DNA of 64,000 bases, taken from assembly GCA_037042185.1 (NCBI GenBank), contig JAXQJY010000021.1, forward strand, positions 124,001 through 188,000, read 5' to 3'. The notes beneath the pieces are model-generated. The model had not been told where the DNA came from. It searched no databases and saw only the letters and a program-made list of their open reading frames with translations. Source of the stretch: Sordariomycetes sp. S80-01Y. Its lineage: Eukaryota; Ascomycota; Sordariomycetes. The translations under genes and the position numbers were made by a program. Positions 20,659 to 48,256 of the stretch are shown piece after piece (positions within the stretch are counted from its first letter, which is position 1; each line of letters starts with the position of its first letter).

Positions 20659-22037
20659 ATGGTACACGAAACGAAACGACTAGACAAAGTGTACGCCACG
20701 ATACTCGCCCGTCGTGGCAACGAGGGTCGTTTACGCCGTCTCACGGTCCCAACACCGGACACTGTCGATTTCTCCTCCAACAGCTACCTTTCCCTCTCTA
20801 CAAACCCAGAAATAAAAACCAACTACCTTCAAAGGGTTCAATCGGCCACTCATGGATTTTCCTTAGGGTCTGGAGGCTCACGGCTGTTGGACGGCAACAG
20901 TGCCGCGGCCGAGGCACTTGAACTCTCTATCGCGGCATTTCACGGCGCGCCGGCAGGGTTGCTCTTCAACTCAGGATTCGAGGCGAACACGGGCCTTTTC
21001 AGTTGTGCACCGCAGCCCGGGGATGTCATCGTGTACGATGAGCTTATACATGCGAGTGTGCACGATGGGATGAGGTTAAGCAGGGCGCGAAGGGTCCCAT
21101 TTGCGCACAATTGCGTGAGAGGCAGCCGAGCTCCCGCTCAGGCGACCAAGAGCTTGGATGACGTGCTTTCTGGGCTTCTCCATGGACAGGACGGTGAGAA
21201 GCTCAGAACCGGCCGAACCAACGTGTTTGTCGCCGTCGAGAGCGTGTACAGTATGGATGGAGACCTTGCGCCACTTGCAGACATTATCAATTGCGTGGAG
21301 GGGAGGCTGCCCAACGGGAATGGGCACATCATCGTCGACGAAGCGCATTCAACTGGCTGGTTGGGGAACCGTGGAAGAGGGTTAGTCTCTCAACTAGGCC
21401 TTGAAGATCGCGTATGGGCAAGAGTGCATACATTTGGCAAAGCCATGGGATGTGCTGGTGGTGAGTTTGTCTGATTCCGCTGAGTCTGACGCGTACTAAA
21501 ATGCTAGCCATCGTTCTTTGCTCGCCAACGACACGACTATACCTGATCAACTATGCCCGTAGCTTCATTTACACGACAGCTATGGGTTATCCTTTGCTTG
21601 CCGCCATCGAGACCGCTTACGAGTACCTTGGAGGCGCTCAAGTAGAGCCTCACCTCAACCACCTCCGCTCACTGATACAATACGCCCATCGCCTCCTCGC
21701 CTCTCTTTGCGCTGCAACTCAGCCTTCCAGAAGCCTTTTTCATATCAATGAAGAGCTTCCCACATCCCCCATCATCCCTCTATTTACACTGTACGCCCGG
21801 AGTCTTGCGCAGCACTGCCAGCAGAAGGGATTTATGTTGCGGCCGATTGTGGCCCCAACGGTGCCTGCTGGACAGGATAGAGTCAGGCTATGCTTACATG
21901 CCGGAAACACATTTGAAGAAGTTCAAGGCTTGTGCAAGGAGATAGCGGTATGGGTTTGCCAGCAGCGGTCAAAAACCGAGTCAGATGCAGAATCACGGAC
22001 CGTGGAGGAGCGACCCCGACAGCCTAGTAAATTATGA
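20659..22037 (+). CDS. bioF: 8-amino-7-oxononanoate synthase with C-terminal SKL
   Basis: A PLP enzyme of the alpha-oxoamine synthase family that condenses pimeloyl-CoA or its equivalent with alanine, the first committed step of biotin assembly. Exons 20659-21460 and 21508-22037 give 443 residues. Motifs: FSSNSYLSL, SGGSRLLDGN, VDEAHSTGWLG and the PLP lysine K261 in VHTFGKAMG. The protein ends QPSKL, a canonical peroxisomal targeting signal (PTS1). BioF import into peroxisomes has been reported for Aspergillus and other eukaryotes, where peroxisomal beta-oxidation supplies the pimeloyl donor. The downstream neighbour, convergent at 250 bp, also ends in SKL. Confidence 0.92.
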
Positions 22038-22289
22038 GCACAAGCACAAAACAGAGGCACCCCCAAGCCCACAAGAATACCGTATCGGATGATGTTTCTC
22101 TCATTTGGTCTCCATAGATCTAAACAAGTCTCTGATACTGATCTGACGGGCCTTGCAGGAGCGATCTTTGTAATAGCCGTGACGTCTGTGGTAGCAGCCT
22201 TAGGATTCCCAGTCCCAGTTGTTCTGGTCTTGTTGGTCTGATATATGTCCAGAGAAATATCATCAAGGAGCCATGCTGCTAAGGCTCAC

Positions 22290-23264
22290 TCACAGTTTCG
22301 AGGACGGTTCTGTTGCGCCGGGAACTAGCTGCTGCACAAGATGTAGAGTCCTGTCCACTACCCGCGCGTCAATCTCACGCTCCATCCAAAGGGTAGCTTG
22401 TGCAATTACCACACGAACCAATACCGTGCTCCCAAGGATTACATGGCAGCCCTCCCTTTCCCCCAGCTTCGCGAGTCTCGTCATTGGGCTCGGCATGTAG
22501 CACATGTCCAGCAAGACCCCAGTCCCTCCCATTCGAGACAGAAGCTTTTCACCTATTCGCCAGGTCAGTCGTTCGTTTGAAGCCTGCGGCTCCAGATCGG
22601 GGACCGTCCCGACGCAAATGACCGGCGACAGCAGCTTCTCTGTATCCCTAAGGGTTTGCACGTGTCGCAACTTCACACCAGGAAGCGATTCTTCCATGCC
22701 TGCTACCAACACGTCGACCTCCTCTTTTAGTCGGTTCACAATATAGATCTCAGACGGGCCGAACCACGTGAACAGCGCATAAATGGCACTCCGAGCTGCT
22801 CCTCCGGCTCCAAAGATGAGTGCAGGGCGACCTTGTTGACTTTGGCAAACCGATGGTACCTGGAGCAGGGATTCGCGGATGCCGACGCAATCTGTATTGG
22901 TTCCGATCAGTCGACGCTTCCCATCTTCCCCAAGCCTCATGTAGCATGTGTTGACGGCTCCGATACCCCTGACTTTCTCGTCCAAGACATCGAAGCGTGG
23001 CATGAAAGTGATTTTGTTGGGCATAGTGATTGAGCCACCAATCGTGGCAGGATCTCCCATAACGGCAGCGAAATCATCCGGATGCGCTGTCCGACTGAGT
23101 TGAGCCGTCCACGGTAATCCATAAGTGTGGAATAGGAAAGAGAGGATTAATGGCGATAATGATTTGGAGATGTGAGTTCCGAACAAATGTGTTCGTACCG
23201 CGAGGATGCCGTCCGAAGGCAACGCAGATGCCCCATGCCGGTAGGAGTCATTCAGTGTTTCCAT
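22290..23264 (-). CDS. Quinate/shikimate dehydrogenase-like enzyme, C-terminal SKL
   Basis: A single-exon, 324-residue member of the AroE/QutB shikimate-quinate dehydrogenase family, which oxidises or reduces a ring hydroxyl with NAD(P). Substrate-domain features are SKSLSPLILS (about 33-42), the catalytic lysine K84 in TMPNK, N105 in GAVNT and D125 in NTDCVGIRESL. The cofactor loop GAGGAARSA lies at 152-160, followed by IYIVNRLKEEVD. It is a stand-alone protein, unlike the pentafunctional AROM arm, so a catabolic role like QutB/Qa-3 is likely. It ends EPSSKL, a PTS1, which is not a known feature of QutB. The start is the first in-frame ATG; an upstream extension would need a GTG. Exact substrate unknown. 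Confidence 0.83.
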   Translation of the reverse strand: METLNDSYRHGASALPSDGILAVRTHLFGTHISKSLSPLILSFLFHTYGLPWTAQLSRTAHPDDFAAVMGDPATIGGSITMPNKITFMPRFDVLDEKVRGIGAVNTCYMRLGEDGKRRLIGTNTDCVGIRESLLQVPSVCQSQQGRPALIFGAGGAARSAIYALFTWFGPSEIYIVNRLKEEVDVLVAGMEESLPGVKLRHVQTLRDTEKLLSPVICVGTVPDLEPQASNERLTWRIGEKLLSRMGGTGVLLDMCYMPSPMTRLAKLGEREGCHVILGSTVLVRVVIAQATLWMEREIDARVVDRTLHLVQQLVPGATEPSSKL

Positions 23265-24234
23265 AACGGGACTGTGGTTGACAGATGTTGAACGGGTCTG
23301 TGTAGCACGAAATGAGGAATCTGTGGTATATGTCACTGGATGCCTATAGCCGCGGTGACGGCAAGTTGTTGGGTAAATGAGGCCTTACATTGAGACGAGC
23401 GCATCACGGATGTCACGCGGCCGGCTTCTAAATCAAAGCACCGGATCTCTAAACTACCTACCCCAATCTGGTAGTCTCCGGTCCTAAACCACCGTTGAAA
23501 TCGACGATTGCTTTTACCAGAAGCTTGGCTTCTATACTCGGGCTGAGGCTTTTCTCTTCCTCGCTGGAAGAGCACCCTCCACAGAGCATCTGTGGTAACT
23601 GTTTCAGTGCGAGGCAACAAACCCTTAGAACTCTCATGTTCTGTCAATAGGATCGGCATCCTTGTATTAGGCTACCCCAAGTCACTTAAATAGAAACCCC
23701 GCAACCCCAGTTTAGAACTCAATCTTACACCAATCTGACTCCAGCAGGACAGGCCCCAATTGTGGCTTCAAGCCTAGCCAAAGACCCGTTGCTTCGCCTT
23801 TCTAGTTAACAAACGACTCGAATAGAGATGCACGAGGCATCAGCGTGGACTCCCAAAACACCACCCTGTTTATTGACACGTTCAGGCTTGGGAAATGAGT
23901 GAATATTACTCATTCGTCCAGGTAGCAATATGTAGGTGACAATACACTCTGATGACGGATACTGTGTCACAGAGCTGGTCAATGGGTGGTAGCCTGTTTG
24001 CTTAAAGTGGCTAGGAGTCATGGCGAGTGGTTGACCATAGGTAGCGGTACGGGCTTTAAAGATCAAGACGTAGGATATTTCCGGTGCCTCGCGTCGGTGG
24101 CTTTTTCTAGGCAACCTGCTAAAGAAATAACCGGAAACCCGCACTAGTCTACCGGTGATGCAGACGTAAGTAAAAGGCATAACCCCGCGCTTAAGACGAG
24201 CTCCCTGTGCATCGTCTTTAATAATACCGCCAAA
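23265..24234. promoter_or_regulatory. Divergent promoter, shikimate DH-like / Gfo-Idh
   Basis: 0.97 kb between divergently transcribed accessory genes. Short open frames only. No match to the QUTA/QA-1F palindrome was found by eye. A purine-rich stretch and AT-rich segments are present around 23640-23760. Confidence 0.4.
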
Positions 24235-25350
24235 ATGACAGCGCAATCCCCAATTTCTGTCTCCATCCTTGGTGCTGCTGGTCTCATTGGGAGGAAGCAT
24301 CTTCATTACATACTTCAAAACGATCAAACATGTATTCATAGCATTGTCGATCCTACACCAGAGGGTGCCAAGCTTGCCGCCGAGGTCGGCGCTCCCGTTT
24401 TCACATCCCTTGAAGGCTTGGTGGACTCCTTCGGCACATCGAAGCCTCGAGCAGCCGTCATTGCGACGCCTACCCATATGCACGTCGGTCAGGCAATCGA
24501 ATTGATGAAACATGATATCCATGTCCTCATTGAGAAGCCGGTCTGCGACAGTGTTGAATCTGGCGAAGAGCTATTGAAAGCAGCAGCGTCCTCAGGATCC
24601 GGGACCGTCCTGGTCGGGTATCACAAGAGATTCAACCCTTACATCGTTGCTCTCAAGTCTCTGCTCGAGTCAGGTAAACTGGGGACAATAGTTGCCGTTC
24701 AGGGTACCTGGGCCGCCCGCAAACCTGACGAGTACTTCTCTCAGACCCCGTGGAGAAAACTAAAGGGCTCCGGTGGGCCGATTTTGACCAACATGAGCCA
24801 CGAAGTTGATATGCTACAATACCTGTTTGGAAGCATGACAAGAGTCTTCATGGAATCGGGCCCTCGCTTGCGCGGACATGATGTGGAGGAGACCGGAGCA
24901 GCTGTCCTCAAATTCGCTTCCGGGACAGTAGGTACTTTTGTGTTCAGCGATAATGCGTCCAGCCCCTTCACCTTTGAAGCCGCTACGGGGGAGAACGCAG
25001 AGCTGATCTCGTATACTGGGAAAGACGTGTACCGCATTATGGGCACTAAAGGAAGCGTGGAACTCCCGAGCCTAAAGCGTTACTTCTATGATGGGGAGAG
25101 CGCAGGTCATTGGTCGCTCCCCATTTCCGAAGATGACACTTTATCCCCTACCAAACATCCCGAGCTGTTCCAAAATATCGAGGCGAATGCCCCTTTCAAG
25201 AAGAGGCTGGAACATTGGGTTGATGTGATTGACAACGGCGTTCCAGTCAATTGTACGTTGAAAGACGGGGTCAACGTAACGAGGATCCTCAACGCCCTCT
25301 CTGAAAGCGAAGCGACGGGGTTTCCGGTAGCGATAGATCCACTTCTATAG
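24235..25350 (+). CDS. Gfo/Idh/MocA family NAD(P)-dependent oxidoreductase
   Basis: A 371-residue single-exon protein. The Rossmann N-terminus is SILGAAGLIGRKHLHYI (10-26), then AVIATPTHMHVGQAIELM, the family's conserved EKP (100-102) and the catalytic-type histidine region TNMSHEVDMLQYLFG (185-199), followed by a beta-sheet C-terminal half. Members oxidise or reduce sugar or cyclitol hydroxyls such as myo-inositol at C2, or act on their acids. Its position between a shikimate dehydrogenase-like gene and a QUTA-like regulator suggests a polyol or hydroaromatic substrate. There is no targeting signal at the C-terminus (DPLL). Specific substrate not deducible. Confidence 0.87.
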   Translation: MTAQSPISVSILGAAGLIGRKHLHYILQNDQTCIHSIVDPTPEGAKLAAEVGAPVFTSLEGLVDSFGTSKPRAAVIATPTHMHVGQAIELMKHDIHVLIEKPVCDSVESGEELLKAAASSGSGTVLVGYHKRFNPYIVALKSLLESGKLGTIVAVQGTWAARKPDEYFSQTPWRKLKGSGGPILTNMSHEVDMLQYLFGSMTRVFMESGPRLRGHDVEETGAAVLKFASGTVGTFVFSDNASSPFTFEAATGENAELISYTGKDVYRIMGTKGSVELPSLKRYFYDGESAGHWSLPISEDDTLSPTKHPELFQNIEANAPFKKRLEHWVDVIDNGVPVNCTLKDGVNVTRILNALSESEATGFPVAIDPLL

Positions 25351-25776: not shown

Positions 25777-27804
25777 CTAAACAAACACCGGACCGAGATC
25801 TGATTCATCTATGTCAAAACTTCCGATGAGACCCGAATCCTCGCCATTGTCGGACAAGCACCAAGAAGCGTTGGGCTCTTTCAGTACATCCTCCGTTGTT
25901 TGCTTGGCTGCTGGGCTTTCGCTTGAGCCCAAGATGCTCTCAAACGAATACACCGGATCAAGCCTGGGGAAAGAGAAATGCTCCCCGAGGCTGGACTCCC
26001 ATCCCGACTGATGGAGAGCAGAGTTGCTTGATGTCTCCGAAAGAGAGGGGATACCCGGCCACAAGCTTTGTGATTGGACCGTCTCGCACTCTGCGTTGGA
26101 TGTTGTTGAATCTTGAGGGCTCGGCAAGCCACATAGAACTCCTATTTCATGGCTAAGCATGTAATTGTGTGGTTCACATGTGGGAGTCCTGATGCCATAT
26201 TCTCGCCTTTGATGAGCCCAGGCGGCCGTCATAGCGTTTGTAGTCGTGTGCAATCTCGCCTTCTCACGCGCGTGCAGGAGTCTGAAGTGCTGGCTTCGGC
26301 GGAAGACTGCCAACAGTCCTAAGACAAGTGGCGGCGTCCCTGTCGGACCGAGCGAAGTCTCGCAACATTCAACAACTTCTATTAGGTTGGTGGCCAGTGA
26401 TGTGCTACAGCGATTGTCGCTATTGAGCTGTACTGTCGTGACAAGGAAGGCTACTTGTATGAGGAACGCAGATGGGGATGTGGTGTCTAAGTCTCTCAAG
26501 ACGCTATTGCAGGAGGCAAAAACGGGGTCAAGTGACCGGACGATGTCACCCATGCTGGGCAGGGAGGACTGGGTCCCACGAGCATGTCGTCCAAGAAAGC
26601 AGCAAAAGCGAAAGAGCTGGAGAAGGCTCTTCTGTGGCATCCGATCGGAGGACTTATCATCCCGCCATCGACGAAGCTGGCTCTCAGTCTCATGCACGCT
26701 GGAGGAGTCCGGATTGAACATGCTCGGGTAGCCTAGGCCCGTGGATGCCAATGTGTCCAAGATAAAACATGCCGCACGCATACGATGTTCGATAGAAGGG
26801 CCACCACCATCTTGAAGCAGTCCAGTGTACTTCAGATGCAGTGACAACCTGGTAGCCGTCCCAATGAGCAACCATGCGGCCAGGCCCGCCCCTTGACCCA
26901 TCAGTACTAGAGAATGCAACAGCAACGCCCGCAAGTGCGGTAAAGCAAGAGTCTCTCCATCCCAGGGGACCAAGCTGCGAGCTTTTGAAAAGAGCTTCTG
27001 CGATTGGAATGTTGAATCTTGGGTGCTAAGCAAAGGTTCATGGAAAGCTGCGATTGCCATAACCGCCCATAACTCTGCAATTGCTGGTGATATATCCAGG
27101 GATCCAGGATCGATGCCTTCTTTGGGATATTCCTGAGCAGTGTTGACAACCTCTGAGATTTTGACCAGTGGAAACCAGGAGTGCGTATGTATTCGATAGA
27201 TCTCGATTAGAGCTTGCCAGTTCGAAGGTAGCATAACGAATACTTGTGAATCCGTGGTCTCTGGCAGCATTGGCGTCAATTCCAAGTGTGATGTGTTAGG
27301 ACTGCTTTTGGAAAAAGAATCCTGGCTGAGAAGACTTTTTGAGTCATACTCAGCCTCCGAAGATTCGCAAGATTCGTACCGCTGGTCGTGTTTGCTGGTC
27401 AAAAGGCTTACAATCGACTTGTGAACGGCGCCTTTGGACCACCGCTGGTGCAACTGATGTCCTTCTTGAGTTCGACACTGCAATAGCCTGGCAGATAGTG
27501 TCCCATCGGCAAGGAAACAATGCAAAACCTTTTCACAGGTTGGGTTCTGTTCCATCAACCACGCAAGGGACAGCTCAATGGTCTTCAGGTAGCCCCTCGG
27601 AACACCCCTCTTTCTGACGGTACCCGTATATTTGCATTCTCGCTTCTGGTTTGTGCAGCTTAGGCACCTTGGTCGGGATCCATCGCATCTTTCTCTGGCT
27701 AGGCGACATGAGTCGCATGCGCACGTCACTCTTTGACGTTTGCTTGGCTTCTGAGAAGCAGATGAATTGCCCTTGTTGCTCGCTTGGCGTTTCTTTGCGA
27801 CCAT
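25777..27804 (-). CDS. Zn(II)2Cys6 transcription activator, QUTA/QA-1F-like
   Basis: An uninterrupted 675-codon gene. The binuclear zinc cluster is C30-x2-C33-x6-C40-x6-C47-x2-C50-x6-C57, preceded by KPSKRQRV. What follows resembles the quinate activators QUTA (Aspergillus) and QA-1F (Neurospora): RKRGVPRGYLKTIELSLAWL after the cluster, LHQRWSKGAVHKSIVSLL, then LPSNWQALIEIYRIHTHSWF and AELWAVMAIAAFHEP at the start of the regulatory domain. That likeness is from memory of the QUTA sequence, not alignment. The classical partners (type II dehydroquinase, QutR repressor, QutD) are not next to it, so I read it as a QUTA paralogue controlling this block. The C-terminal ~100 residues are acidic and Ser-rich, suiting activation. 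Confidence 0.8.
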   Translation of the reverse strand: MVAKKRQASNKGNSSASQKPSKRQRVTCACDSCRLARERCDGSRPRCLSCTNQKRECKYTGTVRKRGVPRGYLKTIELSLAWLMEQNPTCEKVLHCFLADGTLSARLLQCRTQEGHQLHQRWSKGAVHKSIVSLLTSKHDQRYESCESSEAEYDSKSLLSQDSFSKSSPNTSHLELTPMLPETTDSQVFVMLPSNWQALIEIYRIHTHSWFPLVKISEVVNTAQEYPKEGIDPGSLDISPAIAELWAVMAIAAFHEPLLSTQDSTFQSQKLFSKARSLVPWDGETLALPHLRALLLHSLVLMGQGAGLAAWLLIGTATRLSLHLKYTGLLQDGGGPSIEHRMRAACFILDTLASTGLGYPSMFNPDSSSVHETESQLRRWRDDKSSDRMPQKSLLQLFRFCCFLGRHARGTQSSLPSMGDIVRSLDPVFASCNSVLRDLDTTSPSAFLIQVAFLVTTVQLNSDNRCSTSLATNLIEVVECCETSLGPTGTPPLVLGLLAVFRRSQHFRLLHAREKARLHTTTNAMTAAWAHQRREYGIRTPTCEPHNYMLSHEIGVLCGLPSPQDSTTSNAECETVQSQSLWPGIPSLSETSSNSALHQSGWESSLGEHFSFPRLDPVYSFESILGSSESPAAKQTTEDVLKEPNASWCLSDNGEDSGLIGSFDIDESDLGPVFV

Positions 27805-28947
27805 AGCTTCCGCCAGCGTATGAGTTTGTTGTGATTAAGAGGAGTTTTCGATCAAAAATGCAATAGAAGTCTGTCGAATTCAAACTCAAGTTGATGGTGG
27901 TGACACAAGTCCTGGAAGACATTTGCCAGATGAAGCAGTTGGTAGTAGGACCTCGCACGCCACGTGACAGCATGCAACCACATGAACCAAACGGGCAGAT
28001 CTTTTTTTCCCTTCTTCTCTTGGCCTATAATGGGCTCGGCATATTGATATCCTTCCAAACTCAACCGATATGATCGAGTGTTGGTGTTGCCCGTGTGTCC
28101 GGCCAAATCTTCAAAGCGCCGGTCGTTGGCAGAATAGAAAGAAGCAATGGAGCACATGTGGATCAAGCGGTCGAGTAGAGGAGGTATACCTTTGATCTGA
28201 CTCGTCAAAGTCCCTTAGCGCCATCAAGCCTTGATAACGGCGTGCCTCCGAATTCGACTTGCCACGGCATTCTTTATCTCGCCACTCACGGTGTCTTCGA
28301 TACATTGAGGCCTGTCATTAAACTGTATTGCAAGTTGGCCACTTCCCTTGAAGTGGAAGAGCAAATTGTCCAGGCATTCCTCAATGTTGTGATACAGTTA
28401 GAATTGTGGCAATGGAACGAATATCCGAAGAAGCTCGTCCAATTCTCACCCAGTTGACGCCATCAGCAGAGACGAAGCTCGAGAATGATCAGTCGAGAGG
28501 ATCACAGAGAAACGAATGTGTAGTTTCCCGGTGCAATCCAGCCCAAACTTGCACGCGAGACACAGCCCTCGGGGGTCAAATTAATTCACCGGACGCGAAG
28601 TGGCGAAACGTACTCCCCGCTTCCTGTGTCCCACGAGACTTCCGCGGCTTGCTAATTGCGTGTCGGAGTTCTTCCACGATATCAGCAGCGATATCCCGGT
28701 TCGCGCGTGATGTACACTGTTGTGGAGAGGTTCATGGGTGATTTATACGACAAGCTGGGTTGTCCCCCGCAGGAACGGGTGACAGGCACGCCCATAAAAG
28801 TCGTTTGCAGCGTGTTTGCAACATACCTCCCTTATCAATAACTGTTGTTCATTCAGCACTGCGTTTTGATTCAACTCGTGAAGGGATCCATTGTAATTAA
28901 GCTCTTTCTTTGACGCTACCTGTTCGCTAATACGGCGTTAACCGAAG
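27805..28947. promoter_or_regulatory. Divergent promoter, QUTA-like regulator / OYE-type reductase
   Basis: A 1.14 kb region with only short open frames (up to 118 codons) without family likeness. CGG and CCG triplets six bases apart lie at 28933-28944, immediately before the reductase ATG; too close to the start to be a confident operator. No QA-1F-type palindrome was seen. Confidence 0.4.
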
Positions 28948-30497
28948 ATGCCTTCAGCCGAACATCGGACTCTAGGACAGGTTAGTGCTCAACAACAACC
29001 TCGCAAGAGTCGCCCGACATTATTGCTTAGAGAGACTCTGTAGTCCATCACACTTCAGCTGTCCGGGAAGATTATTCCTAATAGACTGTATCGTACTCCG
29101 CTCAGCGAGTACGCATCTTCCTACGATGAGAACGACATAGAGAAGACGGGCATCCCGCAGGAAGAATACACACAGCTATATAAAGGTATGTGATAAATGA
29201 TACCCTGGGGAAGTTCCTGCAGCTCACCTGCCTTTAGAGTTAGCGGATGGCGGCGCTGGTCTCATCTGTTTTGGAAACATCCCCATCGATCGGCATAATC
29301 TTGAGAACTATGAGAATGCTGTGCTAGACCCGCGGAACCCATGGGATCCTGTTCGGGCGTTCGCACCGGCTATTCGCGCAGCCAAATCACGTGGCGCCGT
29401 TTGCCTTCCCCAGCTTCAGTATCCGGGCCGTCAGGTTCCTGAATTCTTGAACAAATCTCCCAAGTCAGCTTCTGATGTGCAGTTGAGGCCTTGCCTCAAC
29501 AAAACCTACGGAAAGCCTACGCCCTTGACCTTAGAGGAGATTCGTGAGCTCATTGCCCGCTACGTTTGGGCCGCAGAGTCTCTTCACAAAGCTGGTGCCG
29601 ATGGCATAATCGTAAGTTCTTTCTCGCTTCTGGCAATTTGTGTAGAGCGTAGATTAGTTCAAATATTATACATCTCATCTGACTCACTTCACAGATCCAC
29701 GGCGCACATGGCTACATTATGAACCAGTTCCTATCCCCGTTGACCAACCAACGGACCGACCAGGTAAGGAACAGGCCCGTTGCTTCCAGCACAGCACCAA
29801 TCTGACAATCTACTAGTATGGTGGAAGTCTAGAAAATCGAGCCCGTTTCATCCTCGACGTCGTAAATGCAATCAAAGCCAAGCTTCCGTTGGACAGGTTT
29901 GTCATTGCTGTAAAGTTCAGCTGTCAAGACTGTGAGTGTCCTTGGTTCTACAAGCCCCGTACCTTCCATTGCAAAGCGCGCATGTTAACTAGACTCCATC
30001 GGGAAAGTCATCGAAGGTGGGCAGAGCTTTGCTGAGCAATGCGTTGTGATCAAGTGGCTAGAAGAAGCTGGCGTGGACTTTTTTGACATCTCCGGCGGCA
30101 CCTACGAGTCTCCCGCCTGGAGAGGGAACATCATGACCGAGCTTGCAGACCGCCCGAGTCAAAAGCAGAGAGGAAGGTTCGCGAAGTTCTTTTAATGCCA
30201 GCATATCTCGCCACTAACAGATCTCATCTCAGTTATTTTATCGAATGGGCTCAAGAATTGAAAAAGGTTCTCGTGAGTACACTGATTACGGCTGCTTTCT
30301 GGTTGACAATTCGTAACACAATTGTTCAGTCTCGAGCCGTTATGGGAACCACTGGTGGATGGCGCGATCCCCTGCTAATGGAAGAAGCTGTCGCTAATGG
30401 GCACATTGATATGTGTGGCCTGGGCCGTCCCCTTCGAGAGGAGCCTGACTTTGTAAACAAAATACTGGAAGGAAAGGCTGTGAAAGCTAAGCTGTAG
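28948..30497 (+). CDS. Old-yellow-enzyme-type NADH:flavin oxidoreductase, C-terminal AKL
   Basis: An FMN-dependent ene-reductase or dienoyl-type oxidoreductase. Eight exons (28948-28980, 29044-29185, 29238-29611, 29695-29763, 29817-29931, 29993-30176, 30233-30272, 30330-30497) give 374 residues. The hallmark is [15 protein letters not shown] with [17 protein letters not shown], the substrate-binding His/His pair and flavin-site region of the family; a C-terminal [12 protein letters not shown] matches the phosphate-binding end of the barrel. It reduces activated C=C bonds, or aromatises rings in reverse. The protein ends VKAKL, a canonical PTS1. The many small exons resemble the FAD and MFS genes downstream. 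All exons join in frame. Confidence 0.85.
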
Positions 30498-35194: not shown

Positions 35195-35572
35195 GGTGAG
35201 AATTAGACAGTCAAAAACTATATTTGGAAGCTACTCTCTTGTACGTGCAGGGAAGATCACGGGCAAGGTCTAGACGGCGCAAGTTTTCTTATGGGACCGC
35301 CTGAGGAGACCGTGAATGATGAGTGATGCGCCTTTTCAGTTGGAGCAGCTGCTCCTTGGGTTCCGGTCTCCAAGATCGCGACATCGCCCTTTGGGAACGC
35401 CCGGCGTGTTCTTCTAAGCGCCGGGGAGTGACCTCCAACAGTCACCTGAGTTGCAACCACCGAATCTCGTGCCAAATCTTTGTCTTGTATTTGAGAATGG
35501 TATGAGAAAAGAGCGTCCGGACCTGCAAATCCCACCCCATGGACAGACAATCGGGACCTGATTACCAGAATC
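35195..35572. promoter_or_regulatory. Divergent promoter, SDR / TIM-barrel gene 1
   Basis: A 378-bp shared upstream region; no clear operator was recognised. Confidence 0.45.
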
Positions 35573-36739
35573 ATGGATCACCAAGACATACGCATTGCCA
35601 TCGGCACGAACGCACTAGGCAAACCTGGAGCTGGTCACGACATTGAATCAAAACTCGCAGCAGCCAAAAAGTATGGCTTTGATGGAGTTGAAGTCGCGAT
35701 TGAGTGTCTTAATGCTCACGCAGAACTCGATCTATTTTCCAGCTATGATTCATGGCCTAGCCGTCTACGAGCGGCTGCAGCTGACATTTACGACCGAGCC
35801 AGTGCGCGTGGCCTGGAAATAGTCGCGTTGAATCCATTCGGCGCTTTCGATGGGCTTTCAAATGAACAAGACATCGTGTCGCGGCTGGAGGAAGCAGAGC
35901 TGTGGCTGCAACTCTGCGACGAATTGCACGCCCCTATCCTGCAGGTAATTTATGTTGATTGCCAGACGAGGGAACCGGCTCTCACACTTCTTATAGATCG
36001 CTTCGTGCATTTATCCCTTGCAGCATCAGAAGGCTCTCACGGCAGACCCAAAGCAAATCGCTGAAAACATGAAGAGGCTTGGGTTGATGGCTCAGAAGCA
36101 CGACAAGATAGTAGCATTCGAAGGCGTTGCATGGGGCATTGACGTCAACACGTGGCAGCAAGTCCACGAGATTCTGCGGCATGTCGAACTTGCCAATGTC
36201 CGTCATTGTCTCGATACTTTCCACATCGCCGCAGTGGCTGCCGGTGATCCTTTCAACACTACATCACCAATTCGACCCGATGGAATTGCCAGACTGCAAA
36301 GCAGCCTTTCAGAGATGAGGCAAAATTTGAAAGCGAGGGACATAGGTTACTTTCAGCTGAGCGACGCGGTGGCTGCTGATGAGCAACAGAAAAACTACCC
36401 TGTCAGGGACCTCAAGCAACCACCGTTCATGACGCAGTCGCGCAATTGTCGCGTTTTTCCCGGCGAGGGCGTGCTACCAGTGATGCCAGTGGCCAAGGCC
36501 GTATTTGAGACTGGCTATCGTGGCTGGGTGTCTATGGAAGTCTTTCACCCAGACTTCTGGAAGCAAGACAAGTCGTGAGTCCATCGCGCCAGCTTACCAC
36601 ATTTTACGAGAACCATATGGCTAAATTTCCCCTTTTCCACCGTGGCAGCATACCGGATCAATGGGCACGGAGAGGTATGGCGTCTTGGAAGAAGGTTGCA
36701 AAGCACTGCTTTGGTGGCAGTTCCGCACCGCGCATTTGA
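35573..36739 (+). CDS. Xylose-isomerase-like TIM barrel protein (3-dehydroshikimate dehydratase family) 1
   Basis: Three exons (35573-35944, 35997-36574, 36649-36739) give 346 residues of the AP-endonuclease-2/xylose-isomerase-like superfamily, which includes the 3-dehydroshikimate dehydratase QutC/Qa-4 and many sugar or inosose epimerases and dehydratases. The opening IAIGTNALG ... LAAAKKYGFDGVEVAIEC is as in QutC. The four metal-ligand positions are visible: Glu in AFEGVAWG, Asp in CLDTFHIAA, Gln in YFQLSDA and Glu in SMEVFH. The C-terminal WARRGMASWKKVAKH is typical of QutC-like proteins. The end (APRI) is not a PTS1, unlike its partner at 43 kb. Whether it dehydrates dehydroshikimate or a relative is unknown. 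Confidence 0.82.
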
Positions 36740-37072
36740 ACACGGTGCACTCCCATTTTACCTGAAACTTAGCAAAACTAGACCTGAAAGAAATTCGCAG
36801 TAGTATCAATGATGATCCCTGGAATTTTCGACGCTCTTTGAGGAGACGATTTGACCCGTGCTGATCTGATTTGAGCCGGTTGTCCGGGCTTCAAAATAAT
36901 CAGCCGGATGGGTCCGTAATTCAGGGAATCTGCGGGTCTCTGACGCGAGTGTTCTTTCATGTCGCCTAACCGGGGAGACACCATTTTACAAAAGATGAGT
37001 TAAATACAATGGACTCCCATTTCACGCTTTCCGGACAACGTGACGTGAAGCTCTTCGATAGATGACATTAAC
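36740..37072. other. Intergenic, TIM-barrel 1 3' / FAD gene promoter
   Basis: A 0.33 kb tandem spacer; no motif recognised. Confidence 0.5.
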
Positions 37073-38865
37073 ATGTCACCAGGAAATACGAGCATGGACG
37101 TGGACGTCCTCGTCTGCGGTGGGGGCATGTCAGGCATGTCCTGCGCTACCTTTGCCGCGGAATCGGGAGCAAAAGTTCTAGTTGCAGAGAAGCAGCCACA
37201 TCTTGGCGGTTCTTCTGCGTACTCGGCTGGAATGTTGTGAGTAATGACTCGCTTCTGTGATTGCCCCAGAAGGCCATCTCGTGCTATATGGGAGGTATCA
37301 CTGACGTCTGTTCCATCCAGTTGGGCTCCTCGGACACTCGAACAGCTTCATGAATGGATCCCAGATGGTGAACCCGAGTTACAGAAAGCATGGCACCTAG
37401 ACTATCTACGAGCAGTCCAATGGATGCGGCAAATGGACGTGCCCACAGCCGCGCAATATGGACCCATCATGACTATTGGTGAGTTAATCAATATACATGA
37501 CGAAGGTTACCGCCAACGCTTGCTAAATGTATTATACAGGCATTGGCTATCCGATCAAGATACCAATGCTCTACCAATTACATGCGAAACGGCTTCGAGA
37601 AAGCAATACCGGCTCCCAGGTCTGGGTCAACACCCAGGTGGTTAAGCTCATACAAGAGAATGATGGTGTTCAAGGCTCTCGCATTGTCGGCGCGGTGCTT
37701 CAACGAAGTAATGGAGCCCAGAGCACGTACATCGAGGTTAGAGCGAATGTCGTTGTCATGGCCACTGGAGGTTTCCAAGGCTCCAAGGAGATGCGAGCGA
37801 GATATCTCGGTCCCGGTGCCGACAATCTCTTCGTGAGGTCCAATACAGGCTCAGTGGGCGATGGCCTAAGGCTTGCTGGATTGGTGGGTGCCGGCTCAAG
37901 CAGCGGCCTCGCGACATACTACGGCCACCTCATGGCTGCTCCTTTGAGACGTGCAGATATCACCCCAAAGGAGTTTTTGCTTCTTGCTCAATACCGTGGG
38001 TAAAAGTCGCTCTAGGAATAACCAAGGCTGACCTATCGTAGACAGTCGACGATCCATACTCATCAATGAGGCCGGTAGGCGGTTTGCCGACGAATCTACA
38101 GGCGATGAAGTTGTCAACCAGTATTTGACCAAGCAGGAAAATCGGCGTGGGTTCATTCTTTTCGAGTATGTTTCTCATCCAAGCATACCTATATCTGCTT
38201 TGCATCATTTTCAGCTAATTCTCAGCTCAGCGAGCATGTCCGCACCCAGTATTGCATATCATCGCCGTTTCCCAACGCAGGCAATATTGATCGCCTTGCG
38301 TTGGCTCGGAAGTATGGTTGCAACGTGGTTGAGTCACCTACTTTGGCAGGCCTGATTGAGGCACTTGGAGAATTTGGCGTTAACACCAATGAGGCAAAGA
38401 GGACCATCGAACAATACCACAAATCAGTTGCCTTGGGCGATTCCTCCATAGTCCTCGACGCACCGACTGGCCGCGGGGGTGAGCCGGCGGCACCGCTCGA
38501 GGAGGGCAAAGGTCCATTCTTTGCCATGGAGGTCCAGCCATCGTGAGTCTTCCAGCTATCTTAGGACTTAAGCCATGTACAATTTCTAATCACGTTTTAG
38601 AATCACTTTCACGTACGGCGGGATCTCCATCGACACAAAGGGCCACGCTCTGACTCCTGACAACATGCCCATCCCGGGACTTCTGGTTGCCGGCGTAGAT
38701 GCTGGAGGTTTCAGCAACCTTGGATACGCTGGTGGACTGGCGCTTGCGTTCGTGACGGGATTTTGGGCTGCCCGAGAAGCAGCGTATCAACTCAATATGC
38801 CCGCTCCATCGTTACCCGAGCCGAATGCGAAGGATTTGGAGAGTGCTACCAATAGCCGGCTATGA
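37073..38865 (+). CDS. FAD-dependent dehydrogenase/reductase, fumarate-reductase type, C-terminal SRL
   Basis: A flavoprotein of the FAD_binding_2 family (fumarate reductase, 3-ketosteroid dehydrogenase). Exons 37073-37236, 37321-37478, 37540-37995, 38042-38165, 38231-38542 and 38601-38865 encode 492 residues. The dinucleotide fold is VLVCGGGMSGMSCATFAAE with VAEKQPHLGGSSAYSAGMF; the second FAD segment NVVVMATGGFQG and the C-terminal GGFSNLGYAGGLALAFVTGFWAA are typical. Such enzymes desaturate or reduce C-C bonds next to a carbonyl or carboxylate, which suits ring chemistry on a cyclohexene carboxylate. It ends TNSRL, a canonical PTS1. Acceptors D and E in the splicing were chosen to keep INEAGRRFADE and EHVRTQYC in frame. 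Confidence 0.83.
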
Positions 38866-39107: not shown

Positions 39108-39661
39108 CTTCATCCATGCGGATAAACATAATTACAATAGGGTCTAGGATGAAGCTACGGCTCCATTTGATGCTAGTTCTGAGCTCGTGCGGACGATATT
39201 GGGACAAGAGCAGTCATGCAAATGCGCTCTAATCCAATACTTCGTTTGAGATATTCACATTCGTGTCATCTCAGCGCTTTGCTGTCAGGCGAGGGCCTGC
39301 CACGCTGTAAAATGTAATTGCCGCGGAGCTCACCACTGCCGAGTCATGCATGTGAGCTCAGGCCAACCGACATAGACCCTTCTCAGACTAGTGCTTCCAG
39401 CCAACACCCGCCGGGACAATAATTTAGACGACCGGTATATGGTCTTACCCCAGACAGTCGCCTACATGCCTTTCGAGGTGCGGGGTGGTCTGGGATGCTT
39501 CTCCACGGGGCGCACCTCCATGTCTGTTGACGCGGCTTTCTCCGGCACTCTAGCCCACGCTCCATTGACCGACTGCGCCAAAACCAGCAGTGATTCCCTT
39601 TTCGCCAAGGTTGCCCCAGGCCAGCGCTCAGAAGTGCTGGCGGAAGCCCGCGTTGGAAGCA

Positions 39662-39668
39662 TATAAGG
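39662..39668 (+). promoter_or_regulatory. TATA box of the Dal5-type permease
   Basis: TATAAGG about 90 bp before the ATG, at a sensible core-promoter distance. Confidence 0.4.
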
Positions 39669-39755
39669 AGCTGACCCGACCATATTGTTTCTCAAGTCCA
39701 CAGTCTTTCACTTGGTTTTCTCTCCTCATCTCATTGTTCTCGCGAATTTATCACC

Positions 39756-42247
39756 ATGACTGCTGCCAGAAGAGACTCCAATACAGACGCAGTCGACGCT
39801 GAGATAAGTGAGAAGACAGGCGGTGTTGAGCACCACGATGACAACGCCAGTGAATACCAAAACGCGGTGGTTGACGGCGTGGCTCCCGTGTACTCTACCA
39901 AAGGTTCGTTTGACTATGCATTTTTCGAGACTTTGAGCCTTTCTGCAAATTCGGAAGCTGACCAAACAATCAGAGATGAATGCCGTGCGCAGAAAAATTG
40001 ACTGGCGCATTATGCCCTTGGCAGCCTGGACTTGCGGCCTGCAATTTGTAGACAAGGTTTGTTTCATTTATCAGACCTATAATTGATCTTTCTAATATTG
40101 TTGCTAGTCTGCTCTTGGAGCCGCTGCTACCTATGGACTCCGTGAGGATTTAGGTCTTCATGGACAGGAGTATTCATGGTGTGTCTCAGTGAGTATGCTA
40201 ATTGATTGAGGTGCTCTTGTCTTGAAGTGCCTCATCTTCCCCGAAAGCATTGTTTCAAGTTTTAGGATGGTTCTAAGACTCGCTGATAGATCTTTTACTT
40301 TGGCTACCTCGCCGGATCCTTCGTCTCCGGCCGTGGACTTCAATACTTCCACGCTGGGAAGTTCATGGGAGTCGCCTTCTTCATCTGGGGTGGAACCCTC
40401 CTTGCCTGTATAGGAGCAAAGGGCTTCGCATCCTTGATGGCTCTTCGATTCTTGCTTGGGTAAGCATAGCAGAGCTCCGGGAATGGTAGGACTGAGCGTT
40501 GACAGCGCCCTCTAGACTTTTTGAATCTTGCGTGGTTCCGGGGCTGTTGCTCATGTAAGTATATTGACCGATCCCAACGTGCGCATACGAACCATTTGCT
40601 AACTTATTTTCAAGCACTACAATGTGGTACGTTCCGGTGGCGAGAGGGTTCTCGGCCTTCATGGCTTACATCATTCTAGGTACACGCAGAGGGAGCAGCC
40701 ACTTCGCTTCGGTTTATGGACGGTGTTGAATGGTTTTCTGCCCGTACCATTTCTCGTTATCTACTACGGTAAGCCTCACAAAGTGCGCTCGCTTCATGAA
40801 TAGAAAAGAATGCTGACGCAAATTCAAGGTCTTGGTCATATCAAGAGCGGTCCACTTGTAAGGATCAAGATTCATCTGCAGCGTCACACGTGCATTTTAG
40901 CTGACCTTTTTATGTAGATCTCGTGGCAGCTGATCTTCCTTCTTCTCGGACTCCTTAGCTGCGTAACTGGGGTCTTACTTGTACGTCAAGCCTTGGAGAC
41001 TTCGGAAATCCATGCCATCATTGATCTGACCAGACAACACTAGTACTTTATTATGCCAGACTCTCCCGAAAACGAAACTTGGCTCAACGAGCGCGAGAAG
41101 GCCATTGCTATCAAGAGAGTCGCGGACGACCAACTCGGTGTGAAAGAGAGTGAGCAACACCATCACTGCTACAAATACCGCATGAGCTGACGTCTTTGAT
41201 AGCCACTTTCAAGCGGACACAAGTAGGTTTGCGTGCGCGCTTGATCACGTCATTTCGTTACTGATAGGAGACCTAGCTCAAAGAAGCCATCACAGACTAC
41301 CGCGTCTGGATGATCGTGTTCCAGATGTTCTTTTCCCAGGCAATGGGAAATGTGACGACCAACTTCCTCGGCATCATCATCAAGGTACTATCCCGTCACA
41401 GTATCCCGTGCCTAACGCGTGCCTTTGTGCGGAGTTGCAATGCTAATCACAGGCTTTCTACAACAGGGTTTTGGGTACTCCGATCTGACTGCCCAGCTAT
41501 TCACTGCCCCCAACTATGCTGTTCAGGTATTTCAACAATCTTTTCTTCTATGAATGTATGTAAAGCAGCAGCTAATGTGTTTACAGGGTGCATCTCAACT
41601 TATTGTCTCAGCACTCCCGACTTTTTTCAAGCCCTTCCGATCGATGAAGCAACCCCTTACGGCAGCGGCGAGCATCATCTCACTTGTCGGCATCGCGATT
41701 TTGTACGTGACTCCTGATGAGGTGCAATACCAGAGCCGCAGGCTTGGAGCCATCATTCTCATCTCATGCTCTGGCGTCAACTACACTGTCATCATGTCTG
41801 TCATCGGTAGCAACATCACTGGTACGACCAAGAAGCAGATGACAACCTCGGCTACCTTTGTTATGTACTGTGTCATCAACATCATCACGCCGCAGACTTT
41901 CATCGGAACGGAATCTCCTCGCTACCCGACAGGACTGACGTTTGTTATGTCGTATGTTGATATCCCCGCGCTTCGACTTCAATAAATCAGACTCTAACGG
42001 AAGCAGGTTCTGCTCAGTTTTCATTGCTCTGACTCTTTCTACCTGGCTCTGTATGAGACTTGAGAACTCGCGAAGGGATAAGTTGGCGATAAGCGATCCT
42101 AGCTACGACCGCCACGGTGCTACTGATGGGGATATTGCCAATCCAAAGTGAGTCAATTTCACTATTTGGCCGCGCTTTATACTTTTCTGACACATATTTA
42201 GGGATGACACAGACAGGGAGAACAAGCGATTTCGGTATTCTGGTTAG
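39756..42247 (+). CDS. MFS permease, Dal5/allantoate (anion:cation symporter) family
   Basis: A plasma-membrane transporter for small organic anions. I assemble sixteen exons: 39756-39903, 39974-40056, 40108-40188, 40290-40459, 40516-40554, 40615-40626, 40680-40768, 40829-40857, 40918-40980, 41044-41149, 41203-41222, 41277-41384, 41467-41526, 41587-41951, 42007-42147, 42202-42247. They join in frame to 519 residues. Family features: hydrophilic N-terminus, RRKIDWRIMPLAAWTCGLQF, GQEYSWCVSIFYFGYLAG, LFESCVVPGLLLITTMWYTQ, and GFGYSDLTAQLFTAPNYAVQ in the second half; twelve hydrophobic helices are expected. Exon 6 is only 12 nt and exon 11 only 20 nt. It probably imports the cluster's substrate (a hydroaromatic or similar acid). 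Small-exon borders are the least certain part. Confidence 0.8.
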
Positions 42248-42975
42248 TTGGGCAGGCTGTAGTGACGTCTTGGGACCGTTTGCCCAGGGACTTGTGGAGA
42301 TACCGTTCGAAGTTGAGAGGCCACTGTGTAGGCAAAATGAAGCTTGATGCCTTGTTCCTTCTTGGAACAGGCGGAGCTCATTTGCCTTTACTTCTGCCTT
42401 GGATTGCTGTATGGACTAATCGCCTGCATTATGTGTATGCGCGGGGGCAGTTACTGGATGTTAGCAGACTGAAGATGTTGTTTGATGAGACCATCCAAGC
42501 TCTGAGTACCGAGCCCAAAAACTTCAGCTCTAGTAAGCGAGTGGAGATTAAATTTACAATCGTCTTACGAGCAATTCTTTCGACTGCAAATGCACAACGC
42601 GATTACCGTTGAGTCCGTTGAAGCGATGCAAACATGATTCGTATTCGCCTCTGGGCAACGCATTTAGCTAGCCAACGCCGAGAAGCCCGCCCTGTAGCGA
42701 ACATCCGGCTTGGCGGTAGGTCCGGCCTGGACTATTGTAGGAGCCACGGGGAAGCTTGTGGAGAAGGAGGGGTATGACAACGCCGGTTGGTACTCGACGT
42801 TGCTCTACCCAGACTCGGCCGCAACATAAATCAATTGACCGGAGTGGGTGGATCCAAGGCCGGCCGTTTACACGAGTCTTGGCCGGCTAGATACCTGACA
42901 CTTTTCCATGAGATGCCACCACACCTTGATAACATTTGAAAACGCTCCCTACTCGGAAAACACAGCTTCTTCGAG
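42248..42975. promoter_or_regulatory. Intergenic, permease 3' / TIM-barrel 2 promoter
   Basis: A 0.73 kb tandem spacer. A 116-codon frame (42262-42612) has no recognisable domain. Several CGG triplets cluster at 42709-42728 (CGGCTTGGCGGTAGGTCCGG), which zinc-cluster regulators might use. Confidence 0.4.
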
Positions 42976-44154
42976 ATGAATAGACCCGCCGATTACGACA
43001 GCGGCACAATGCCCGTTCACACCCTCTCACACCGGTTTGGAACAGCCACTGTCTCTCTCGGTCATCCGGAAGCTCAAGGTCTAACACCGAAACTGAAGGC
43101 AGCTGCGGCAGCAGGCTTCAAGTATATTGACCTCTTTGACGAATGCTGGGCCTCATATCTTACTCAACATGGTCAGAACAGCGAGCGATTGTGGGATGCG
43201 ACGCCCGAGAACCTGGCAATAGCAAGACAGCTGGGCGATGAAGTAAAGGGATTGGGTATGGAGATTGTCTGCACCCAGCCCCTTCGTATGATCGAGGGGC
43301 GTCGAGAGCCGAAGGAGAGGGCTCGTCAACTGGAATTGGTCGCCAAGAGATTCCTTTTCATGCGAGCCTTCGACACCGACCTTGTCTTCATGTGCTCGAG
43401 CATTGACAAGGAGCCCTCATCTACTATGGATTTTAAAACGGTGGCCAAGGACTTGAGAGAGATGGGCAGGATGGCCGAGGAATTCTCCAAGGCAGATGGC
43501 GGCCGCATGCTCAAGATTGGCTACGAAGGCCTTTCTTGGGCCCAGCGCAACACGTGGGCGTCGAGTTGGGAGGTGGTGCGAGCGGCGAACCGACATAATG
43601 TTGGACTCATCGTGGACTCGTTCAACCTCCTAGCAGTTGAATATGCGGACCCATACAATCCTGAAGGGCACGGACGTTTGTATTCGACAGAGGAGGAATC
43701 CCTCGATGTTTTGAGAATGTCCTTGGCATCCTTCGTCTCAACAGTTCCGGGAGATCGCATCTTCCTCGTGCAGCTAGGCGACGCACAGAAGATGGACCCC
43801 GTTCATTTCAAGCGACCGGCAGATGAAACGACCCCTGAGCTGCTACCCTGGTCGAGGAAACATCGACTGTACCCTTTGGAGAAGCATCTTGGGGCTTATA
43901 TGCCAGTTCATCTAACGTTGGCTGCTGTAATCGCAACGGGGTATGCTGGCCCATTATCCCTTGAGGTTTTCACGGCATCTCTACATGATTCGGGACCTTC
44001 TGTCCCAGAAGATCATGCCAAAAGGGGGATCCGAGGACTCAGCAGGTTGTGCGATGCTGTAGCAAAGGTTGAGCCCTTTTGGGGGACCACAGCCTCCGAA
44101 ACCACGGCATATAAAGTGTGGAAAAGGGGCAACACTGCAAGTGCTCGACTTTGA
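42976..44154 (+). CDS. Xylose-isomerase-like TIM barrel protein 2 (QutC-like), C-terminal ARL
   Basis: A single-exon, 392-residue relative of 3-dehydroshikimate dehydratase and sugar/inosose isomerases. It opens with FGTATVSLGHPEAQGLTPKL and a helix AAAAAGFKYIDLFDECW, as in QutC-type N-termini. Metal-ligand positions are Glu in GYEGLSWA, Asp in IVDSFNLLA, Gln in FLVQLGDAQ and Glu in SLEVFTASL. FKRPADETTPELLPWSRKHRLYP matches the conserved loop of fungal QutC. It ends TASARL, a canonical PTS1, unlike the cytosolic-type end of TIM barrel 1. The lack of introns contrasts with its neighbours. It is a candidate for the ring-dehydrating step of a peroxisomal pathway. Confidence 0.83.
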   Translation: MNRPADYDSGTMPVHTLSHRFGTATVSLGHPEAQGLTPKLKAAAAAGFKYIDLFDECWASYLTQHGQNSERLWDATPENLAIARQLGDEVKGLGMEIVCTQPLRMIEGRREPKERARQLELVAKRFLFMRAFDTDLVFMCSSIDKEPSSTMDFKTVAKDLREMGRMAEEFSKADGGRMLKIGYEGLSWAQRNTWASSWEVVRAANRHNVGLIVDSFNLLAVEYADPYNPEGHGRLYSTEEESLDVLRMSLASFVSTVPGDRIFLVQLGDAQKMDPVHFKRPADETTPELLPWSRKHRLYPLEKHLGAYMPVHLTLAAVIATGYAGPLSLEVFTASLHDSGPSVPEDHAKRGIRGLSRLCDAVAKVEPFWGTTASETTAYKVWKRGNTASARL

Positions 44155-48199: not shown

Positions 48200-48256
48200 C
48201 TTATAGTATACACGGAGCAAAACTTCGACTACCTACAACAATTCTTCCTGATACCC

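What the first reader, a model, noticed from the sequence alone, without database searches (positions are those of the whole stretch)
20659..44154. Candidate peroxisomal catabolic cluster: five of nine enzymes end in a PTS1 tripeptide
The sequence shows C-termini SKL (BioF), SKL (shikimate DH-like), AKL (OYE-type reductase), SRL (fumarate-reductase-type flavoprotein) and ARL (second QutC-like TIM barrel). The other enzymes from bioDA to 44.2 kb (BioDA, Gfo/Idh, SDR, TIM barrel 1) lack one, and so do all other complete genes in the window. [S/A/C][K/R/H][L/M] at a random C-terminus is expected in well under 1% of proteins. BioF import into peroxisomes is reported; a peroxisomal set of quinate-type enzymes is not one I know. 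I infer a partly peroxisomal pathway for a hydroaromatic or cyclitol acid, with FAD and OYE enzymes desaturating or reducing the ring and possibly generating H2O2.
Basis: partly seen in the sequence, partly recalled or inferred. Interest (0 to 1): 0.9.

Follow-up and report, generated by a model that had tools for sequence, protein, structure and literature searches.

The report
Partly peroxisomal fungal catabolic gene cluster
A fungal gene cluster that looks built to break down a quinate- or shikimate-like plant acid carries peroxisome address tags on four of its seven enzymes, which suggests that part of this pathway runs inside peroxisomes.

Summary
The five C-termini are real: BioF -SKL, quinate/shikimate-dehydrogenase-like -SKL, OYE -AKL, FAD_binding_2 flavoprotein -SRL, second QuiC-like TIM barrel -ARL, and chance does not explain them. 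Corrections: BioF is a known peroxisomal biotin enzyme and not a member; TIM barrel 1 has another 3' exon and ends -PRI, not -DKS. New here: seven CCGG-N16/17-CCGG dyads lie in six cluster intergenic regions, upstream of QutB-like, Gfo/Idh, TF1, SDR/TIM1, FAD, MFS and TIM2 (imperfect copy for OYE; none at bioF/bioDA); with free spacing, simulations put at most 3 there (0 of 400 reach 7). So this is a candidate regulon with PTS1 ends on 4 of 7 enzymes. Gfo/Idh relatives lie near QuiC, 3-dehydroquinate dehydratase or shikimate dehydrogenase genes in 8 of 20 bacterial loci against 1 of 20 controls. The FAD protein lacks fumarate-reductase catalytic residues; a ketone-ring desaturase is likely but unproven. 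I read it as a partly peroxisomal pathway for a hydroaromatic acid. Substrate, step order, localisation and conservation in other fungi are untested: no fungal genomes were available. It extends known partial peroxisomal catabolism (HxnX).

The parts
22290..23264 (-). QutB/AroE-like NAD(P) dehydrogenase, 324 aa, ends -SKL
   Evidence: Lys (TMPNK) and Asp (NTDCVG) align with bacterial shikimate DHs (catalytic roles recalled)
24235..25350 (+). Gfo/Idh/MocA dehydrogenase, 371 aa, no PTS1
25777..27804 (-). TF1, fungal transcription factor (Fungal_trans above cut-off; Zn2Cys6 cluster just below Pfam cut-off)
   Evidence: start codon read; no intron assumed
28948..30497 (+). Old-yellow-enzyme family reductase, 374 aa, 8 exons, ends -AKL
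30890..33460 (-). TF2, probable Zn2Cys6 transcription factor (exons not resolved, start approximate); no dyad upstream
   Evidence: Fungal_trans just below cut-off
34022..35194 (-). SDR dehydrogenase, 249 aa, 8 exons, ends -RGI, no PTS1
35573..36739 (+). TIM barrel 1 (AP_endonuc_2, QuiC-like), 346 aa, 3 exons, corrected end -PRI
37073..38865 (+). FAD_binding_2 flavoprotein, 492 aa, 6 exons, 26-residue C-terminal tail ending -SRL
39756..42151 (+). MFS transporter, 505 aa, 15 exons, nearest NCBIfam models D-galactonate transporter and HpaX
   Evidence: NCBIfam hits below cut-offs
42976..44154 (+). TIM barrel 2 (QuiC-like), 392 aa, ends -ARL
23421..23444 (.). CCGG-N16-CCGG dyad upstream of the QutB-like gene
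24131..24155 (.). CCGG-N17-CCGG dyad upstream of Gfo/Idh (same intergenic region as the previous one)
28099..28122 (.). CCGG-N16-CCGG dyad upstream of TF1 (between TF1 and OYE)
28569..28592 (.). imperfect TCGG-N16-CCGG upstream of OYE
35401..35424 (.). CCGG-N16-CCGG dyad between the divergent SDR and TIM1
36884..36907 (.). CCGG-N16-CCGG dyad upstream of the FAD protein
39411..39435 (.). CCGG-N17-CCGG dyad upstream of the MFS gene
42839..42863 (.). CCGG-N17-CCGG dyad upstream of TIM2
20659..22037 (+). BioF (biotin synthesis), ends -SKL; a neighbour, not a member
   Evidence: no dyad at its promoter

Best explanation
A co-regulated fungal catabolic cluster (QutB-like, Gfo/Idh, OYE, SDR, two QuiC-like TIM barrels, FAD enzyme, organic-anion type MFS importer, regulator TF1; possibly TF2) that oxidises and aromatises a quinate/shikimate-like hydroaromatic acid, with four enzymes (QutB-like, OYE, FAD protein, TIM2) imported into peroxisomes by PTS1/Pex5. 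Inferred working order: MFS takes up the acid; Gfo/Idh and/or SDR oxidise a ring alcohol in the cytosol; in the peroxisome the FAD enzyme desaturates the ring next to the ketone, passing electrons to O2 so that H2O2 forms beside catalase; OYE adjusts a C=C; the QutB-like enzyme interconverts alcohol and ketone; TIM2 (and cytosolic TIM1) dehydrates towards an aromatic such as protocatechuate. Shown by sequence: gene models, families, the four tripeptides, the shared dyad. Inferred: localisation, substrate, order, O2 as acceptor.
For: Tripeptides -SKL, -AKL, -SRL, -ARL, beyond chance. AKL, SKL and ARL are the only ends found in more than two Pex5-dependent proteins of Histoplasma, where ARL and SKL drive a reporter to puncta (PMC13343957, passages); SRL is the PTS1 of A. 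nidulans HxnX (PMC9304392, passages). The FAD tail is 26 residues against a median of 7 in 82 bacterial relatives, shorter in 78 of 82, and 0 of 82 end PTS1-like. Seven dyads in the cluster intergenics, 0 of 400 simulations with free spacing reaching 7 there. Gfo/Idh relatives near QuiC/DHQase/ShDH in 8 of 20 loci against 1 of 20 for weaker paralogues (Fisher p 0.02). Both TIM barrels keep the four metal-ligand positions of QuiC (residue roles recalled). FAD protein: Fcc3 residues H365, R402, H504, R544 (numbers recalled) align with A241, D281, T407/F408, Y447; ketosteroid dehydrogenase and ChcC1/ChcC2 desaturase models are among its hits, below cut-off. MFS is nearest to organic-anion transporters, below cut-off.
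Against: No localisation, expression or orthologue data. Gfo/Idh and SDR have no PTS1 and TIM1 at most a weak one, so intermediates would have to cross the peroxisomal membrane. No 3-dehydroquinate dehydratase in the window. The best NCBIfam hit of the FAD protein is tricarballylate dehydrogenase TcuA (141.8 bits, cut-off 369), ahead of the ketosteroid model, and its best PDB hits are flavocytochrome c3 fumarate reductases, so the desaturase reading rests on residues and lower-ranked hits. 12 of 20 strong Gfo/Idh loci show none of the hydroaromatic genes. Bacterial relatives of the FAD protein have 0 of 80 QuiC-like or shikimate-DH neighbours, 2 of 80 a weak Gfo/Idh and 13 of 80 an OYE. The OYE -AKL comes directly after the barrel with no extra tail, so it is the least certain of the four. 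With free spacing the whole-window dyad count alone is not significant (19 of 400 simulations reach 8); only its concentration in the cluster intergenics is.
Confidence: 0.6

Rival explanations
1. The enzymes form a hydroaromatic-acid cluster, but the peroxisomal ends are mostly incidental or give only dual localisation; the pathway runs in the cytosol.
For: Half-tagged set (4 of 7 enzymes); the OYE end lies directly after the barrel; functional but silent PTS1 motifs in non-peroxisomal proteins are reported (PMC545800, start of abstract in search listing).
Against: Four canonical tripeptides together are improbable by chance; the FAD tail is longer than in 78 of 82 relatives.
Confidence: 0.2
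2. The cluster degrades a different cyclic acid (for example a cyclohexane-carboxylate, a cyclitol or a plant/fungal polyketide ring) and the QuiC/AroE likeness is only fold-level.
For: No DHQase in the window; NCBIfam below-cut-off hits include ChcC1/ChcC2 for the FAD protein, ChcB2 among many for the SDR, and inositol 2-dehydrogenase as best for Gfo/Idh; FAD relatives sit in other contexts; one Gfo/Idh relative beside a shikimate DH lies among sugar-transport genes; peroxisomal myo-inositol metabolism is reported in Entamoeba (PMC8629394, title and start of abstract in listing).
Against: Four genes (two QuiC-like barrels, QutB-like, Gfo/Idh) point to quinate/shikimate-type acids.
Confidence: 0.3
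3. A biosynthetic (secondary-metabolite) cluster with peroxisomal steps rather than a catabolic one.
For: OYE, SDR and FAD enzymes also occur in secondary metabolism (recalled); peroxisomal steps there are known (PMC12316961, passage).
Against: No backbone synthase among the cluster genes modelled; an organic-anion type MFS and a dehydrogenase/dehydratase set fit uptake and breakdown.
Confidence: 0.12

Closest known systems
hxn nicotinate cluster of Aspergillus nidulans (HxnX peroxisomal, SRL)
   Same: Catabolic regulon with MFS transporters, an OYE (HxnT) and a PTS1 flavoprotein ending SRL shown in peroxisomes (PMC8478523 and PMC9304392, passages)
   Different: HxnX is the only hxn enzyme with a localisation signal; the substrate is a pyridine; most enzyme families differ
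qa/qut quinate utilisation cluster
   Same: Quinate-DH-like and dehydroshikimate-dehydratase-like enzymes, permease and regulator (PMC12610400, passages)
   Different: Here no DHQase in the window; extra Gfo/Idh, SDR, FAD and OYE enzymes; PTS1 ends; a permease of another MFS type (type of the quinate permease recalled). The word peroxisome does not occur in PMC12610400
Bacterial QuiC-aroQ-Gfo/Idh-shikimate DH clusters (Rhizobium, Marinovum plasmids)
   Same: Same dehydrogenase and dehydratase families close together
   Different: Bacterial, with DHQase; no compartment; the FAD protein in the Marinovum cluster is only 26% identical over the matched part
KstD / ChcC1 / ChcC2 ketone-ring desaturases
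   Same: FAD_binding_2 family; significant but sub-threshold model hits
   Different: A shorter protein with its own near-invariant YGH (235-237) and Tyr447; TcuA is its top model; activity unknown
Peroxisomal CoA-dependent beta-oxidation of hydroxycinnamic acids in Aspergillus niger
   Same: Breakdown of plant aromatic acids in peroxisomes (PMC8140964, title and start of abstract in listing)
   Different: Side-chain shortening of CoA esters by beta-oxidation, not hydroaromatic ring chemistry
Peroxisomal BioF
   Same: PTS1 enzyme next door
   Different: Biotin synthesis, separate pathway, already known (PMC3713238, passages)

Membership tests
PTS1 peroxisomal matrix proteins | C-terminal tripeptide of the canonical type | tested here: met
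   QutB-like, OYE, FAD, TIM2 and BioF
PTS1 peroxisomal matrix proteins | Extra C-terminal tail carrying the tripeptide | tested here: inconclusive
   FAD: 26 aa against median 7, though 4 of 82 relatives have 26 aa or more; QutB-like and TIM2 show extra residues in small alignments; OYE does not
PTS1 peroxisomal matrix proteins | Pex5-dependent localisation | not testable with these tools
   needs microscopy
PTS1 peroxisomal matrix proteins | Conservation in orthologues | not testable with these tools
   no genome held for the window and no fungal collection; single-sequence scans of prokaryote and viral collections gave no relatives
qa/qut quinate cluster | Quinate dehydrogenase and dehydroshikimate dehydratase homologues | tested here: met
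   family level only; all below NCBIfam equivalog cut-offs
qa/qut quinate cluster | 3-dehydroquinate dehydratase in the cluster | tested here: not met
   one type I and one type II query gave no significant hit in the window
Fumarate reductase flavoproteins | Catalytic Arg402/His365/His504/Arg544 (Fcc3 numbering, recalled) | tested here: not met
   aligned residues D281, A241, T407/F408, Y447
KstD/ChcC desaturases | Score above the curated family cut-off | tested here: not met
   PRK12844 135.7 against 789; ChcC2 112.7 against 900; ChcC1 87.5 against 1000 bits
Tricarballylate dehydrogenase TcuA | Score above the curated family cut-off | tested here: not met
   PRK08274.1 141.8 against 369 bits, the best NCBIfam hit of the FAD protein
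QuiC-type 3-dehydroshikimate dehydratases | Four metal ligands (Glu, Asp, Gln, Glu) | tested here: met
   TIM1 and TIM2 aligned with 4 QuiC domains; ligand roles recalled
Single regulon | Shared cis element at member promoters | tested here: met
   OYE only an imperfect copy; which factor binds it was not tested

The most novel reading that the evidence does not exclude
A fungal hydroaromatic-acid pathway in which the ring-desaturating, H2O2-forming flavoprotein, an OYE, a quinate-type dehydrogenase and a dehydratase are gathered in the peroxisome, giving a second, compartmented route beside the qa/qut pathway and keeping reactive dienone intermediates and H2O2 away from the biosynthetic shikimate pathway.
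Probability: 0.4. Interest if true: 0.75.

Novelty: new variant of a known kind. Interest (0 to 1): 0.55.

Why it matters
If the four enzymes are imported, fungal peroxisomes would host a multi-enzyme block of hydroaromatic ring catabolism, beyond the known nicotinate step (HxnX), purine catabolism, BioF and beta-oxidation of hydroxycinnamic acids. It would also offer a reason for a second quinate-like enzyme set apart from qa/qut: separating catabolic from biosynthetic shikimate intermediates and confining H2O2. The shared dyad gives a direct handle for finding the inducer.

Tried and rejected
BioF as part of the block: rejected (known biotin enzyme, no dyad). Hidden PTS1 by read-through and PTS2 N-termini: none found for the seven enzymes. 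Fumarate reductase function: rejected on residues. Bacterial neighbourhood of the FAD protein as a guide to substrate: led nowhere (SDR and OYE neighbours, 0 of 80 QuiC/ShDH). Relatives by single-sequence scans of genome contigs and viral contigs: none. Promoter dyads: a scan of 84 CGG/CCG dyad types drew my eye to paired CCGG; I then tested it with free spacing because the choice was post hoc. OYE with a longer C-terminus by extra splicing (its relative 7fev has 448 aa): considered by eye, no plausible intron seen, not tested by computation. Paper searches bearing on a peroxisomal quinate/dehydroshikimate or aromatic pathway showed no report of one among the titles listed; listings were capped (20 of 63, 15 of 31, 15 of 18, 12 of 164, 12 of 48), the library is open-access only, and of the papers I saw only the listings and the passages cited.

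Full report
What was given.

Checking the genes. I spliced the genes by hand from exon borders and reading frames and checked them against family models. All five C-termini hold: BioF -SKL, QutB-like -SKL, OYE -AKL, FAD protein -SRL, TIM barrel 2 -ARL. The model of TIM barrel 1 was wrong at its end: a 74-base intron (36575-36648) leads to a further exon whose product (IPDQWARRGMASWKKV...) aligns with TIM barrel 2 and bacterial QuiC domains, and the protein ends -PRI. That fits only the permissive relaxed formula (quoted in PMC12316961, passage), so I count it as not PTS1. Gfo/Idh and SDR lack a PTS1. No PTS2-like motif and no read-through PTS1 were found in the seven enzymes.

Chance. In six frames, 22 of 3911 stop codons are preceded by [SAC][KRH][LM]; 8 of the 22 end ORFs of 60 codons or more, five being the claimed ones. 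At 1% per gene, 4 of 7 (without the biotin genes) has p about 3e-7. AKL, SKL and ARL are the only ends seen in more than two Pex5-dependent proteins of Histoplasma (PMC13343957, passages), and SRL works in A. nidulans HxnX (PMC9304392, passages). As a family-specific control, 0 of 82 prokaryotic relatives of the FAD protein end PTS1-like, and their tails after the shared fold have a median of 7 residues against 26 here; 4 of 82 are 26 or longer (86 loci were given, 85 gave a protein with a stop, and 82 remained after frames with internal stops were dropped).

Which genes belong together. A scan of zinc-cluster-type dyads drew attention to paired CCGG. The pattern CCGG-N16/17-CCGG occurs 8 times in the window (1.7 expected, 0 of 100 shuffles reach 8). 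Seven lie in six cluster intergenic regions: two between the divergent QutB-like and Gfo/Idh genes, one each upstream of TF1, between SDR and TIM1, and upstream of FAD, MFS and TIM2; the eighth is at 16977 inside an ORF. An imperfect copy at 28569 is upstream of OYE. Because the spacing was chosen after looking, I let the spacing float in simulations: the whole-window count is then not significant (19 of 400 reach 8), but no simulation put more than 3 in the seven cluster intergenics examined, where 7 are seen (0 of 400). There is none at bioF/bioDA or upstream of TF2. BioF is therefore a neighbour; its peroxisomal role is established (PMC3713238, passages).

What the enzymes are. Pfam and NCBIfam: shikimate/quinate dehydrogenase kin with Lys and Asp positions kept, Gfo/Idh, OYE, two QuiC-like TIM barrels, FAD_binding_2 flavoprotein, SDR, organic-anion type MFS. 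All NCBIfam hits shown except one SDR subfamily are below curated cut-offs, so functions are family-level. Both TIM barrels keep the four metal-ligand positions of QuiC; TIM2 has Asn where QuiC has His after the metal Asp, and TIM1 lacks the Arg of the QPFR stretch (roles recalled). The FAD protein's best NCBIfam hit is tricarballylate dehydrogenase TcuA, followed by a ketosteroid dehydrogenase model, flavocytochrome c and, lower, ChcC2 and ChcC1 (oxocyclohexane-carboxylate desaturases), all below cut-off; its best PDB hits are flavocytochrome c3. It lacks the catalytic residues of those fumarate reductases and has its own near-invariant set (YGH 235-237, T407, Y447).

Bacterial relatives as a guide. 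The five plasmid loci opened that hold a relative of the Gfo/Idh also hold 3-dehydroquinate dehydratase, QuiC or shikimate dehydrogenase genes close by, but three of the five were opened because their record had come up with a TIM-barrel query; the fifth lies among sugar-transport genes. A less biased test: of 289 genomes of the class of a Caulobacter genome, 50 have a match. Of 27 strong places I took the best 20, and of 32 weak ones 20 as control. Hydroaromatic genes lie nearby in 8 of 20 strong and 1 of 20 weak loci; QuiC-like in 6 and 0 (Fisher p 0.02 each). Twelve of 20 strong loci show none, some stretches being cut short by contig ends. For the FAD protein the same approach gave no substrate clue: of 80 loci (the best 80 of 193 relatives), 0 have QuiC-like or shikimate-DH neighbours, 2 a weak Gfo/Idh and 13 an OYE.

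How it most likely works. The MFS takes up a hydroaromatic acid; cytosolic Gfo/Idh or SDR makes a ketone; the peroxisomal FAD enzyme desaturates it, probably with O2 and H2O2; OYE, the QutB-like enzyme and TIM2 complete conversion to an aromatic acid. Only the sequences are shown; localisation, order, substrate and acceptor are inference. The window has no DHQase, so if the route goes through dehydroquinate the fungus must take that step from elsewhere.

Compared with what is known. The nearest case is hxn of A. nidulans, where one enzyme of the regulon is peroxisomal. Peroxisomal beta-oxidation of hydroxycinnamic acids is reported in A. niger (PMC8140964, listing). In A. niger, paralogues of the quinate and dehydroshikimate enzymes exist that quinic acid does not induce (PMC12610400, passages), so second sets of unknown substrate are no surprise. 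I saw no report of a peroxisomal hydroaromatic pathway in the listings. I rate this a new variant of a known kind: partial peroxisomal catabolism, here with several enzymes of a hydroaromatic set.

Limits. The OYE end is the weakest of the four.

Noticed in passing
window 52606-57365: A fungal gene for an AqdC/HOD-type cofactor-free dioxygenase (54778-55692+, 297 bits to PDB 6ra2, 45-54% identical to its three best plasmid hits, all from actinobacteria) beside a carboxylesterase gene (57365-56001-) that matches the esterase next to aqdC2 in R. erythropolis (34% identity). The nearby FAD monooxygenase (53998-52606-) did not match the one beside aqdC2 at E 1e-5. A possible fungal alkylquinolone-degrading set.
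   Followed up: partly
window 46254-49213: A Zn2Cys6 transcription factor whose first ORF has two zinc-cluster matches (46254-47516+) and a PhyH-family protein (48257-49213-) next to the quinolone-type genes.
   Followed up: no
window 36575-36648: An in-frame stop right at the donor site makes TIM barrel 1 look complete without its last exon; automated annotation could make the same mistake.
   Followed up: yes
window 57366-60350: About 3 kb in which I recognised no gene apart from a small acidic ORF (59399-59812-); a 97-codon ORF ending -ARL at 57583- has no support as a gene.
   Followed up: partly
L003 8937-13392: In the haloarchaeon Natrinema versiforme a relative of the FAD protein (32%) lies near a type I 3-dehydroquinate dehydratase and a 4-carboxy-4-hydroxy-2-oxoadipate aldolase, a hint of a link to hydroaromatic or gallate-type chemistry.
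   Followed up: no
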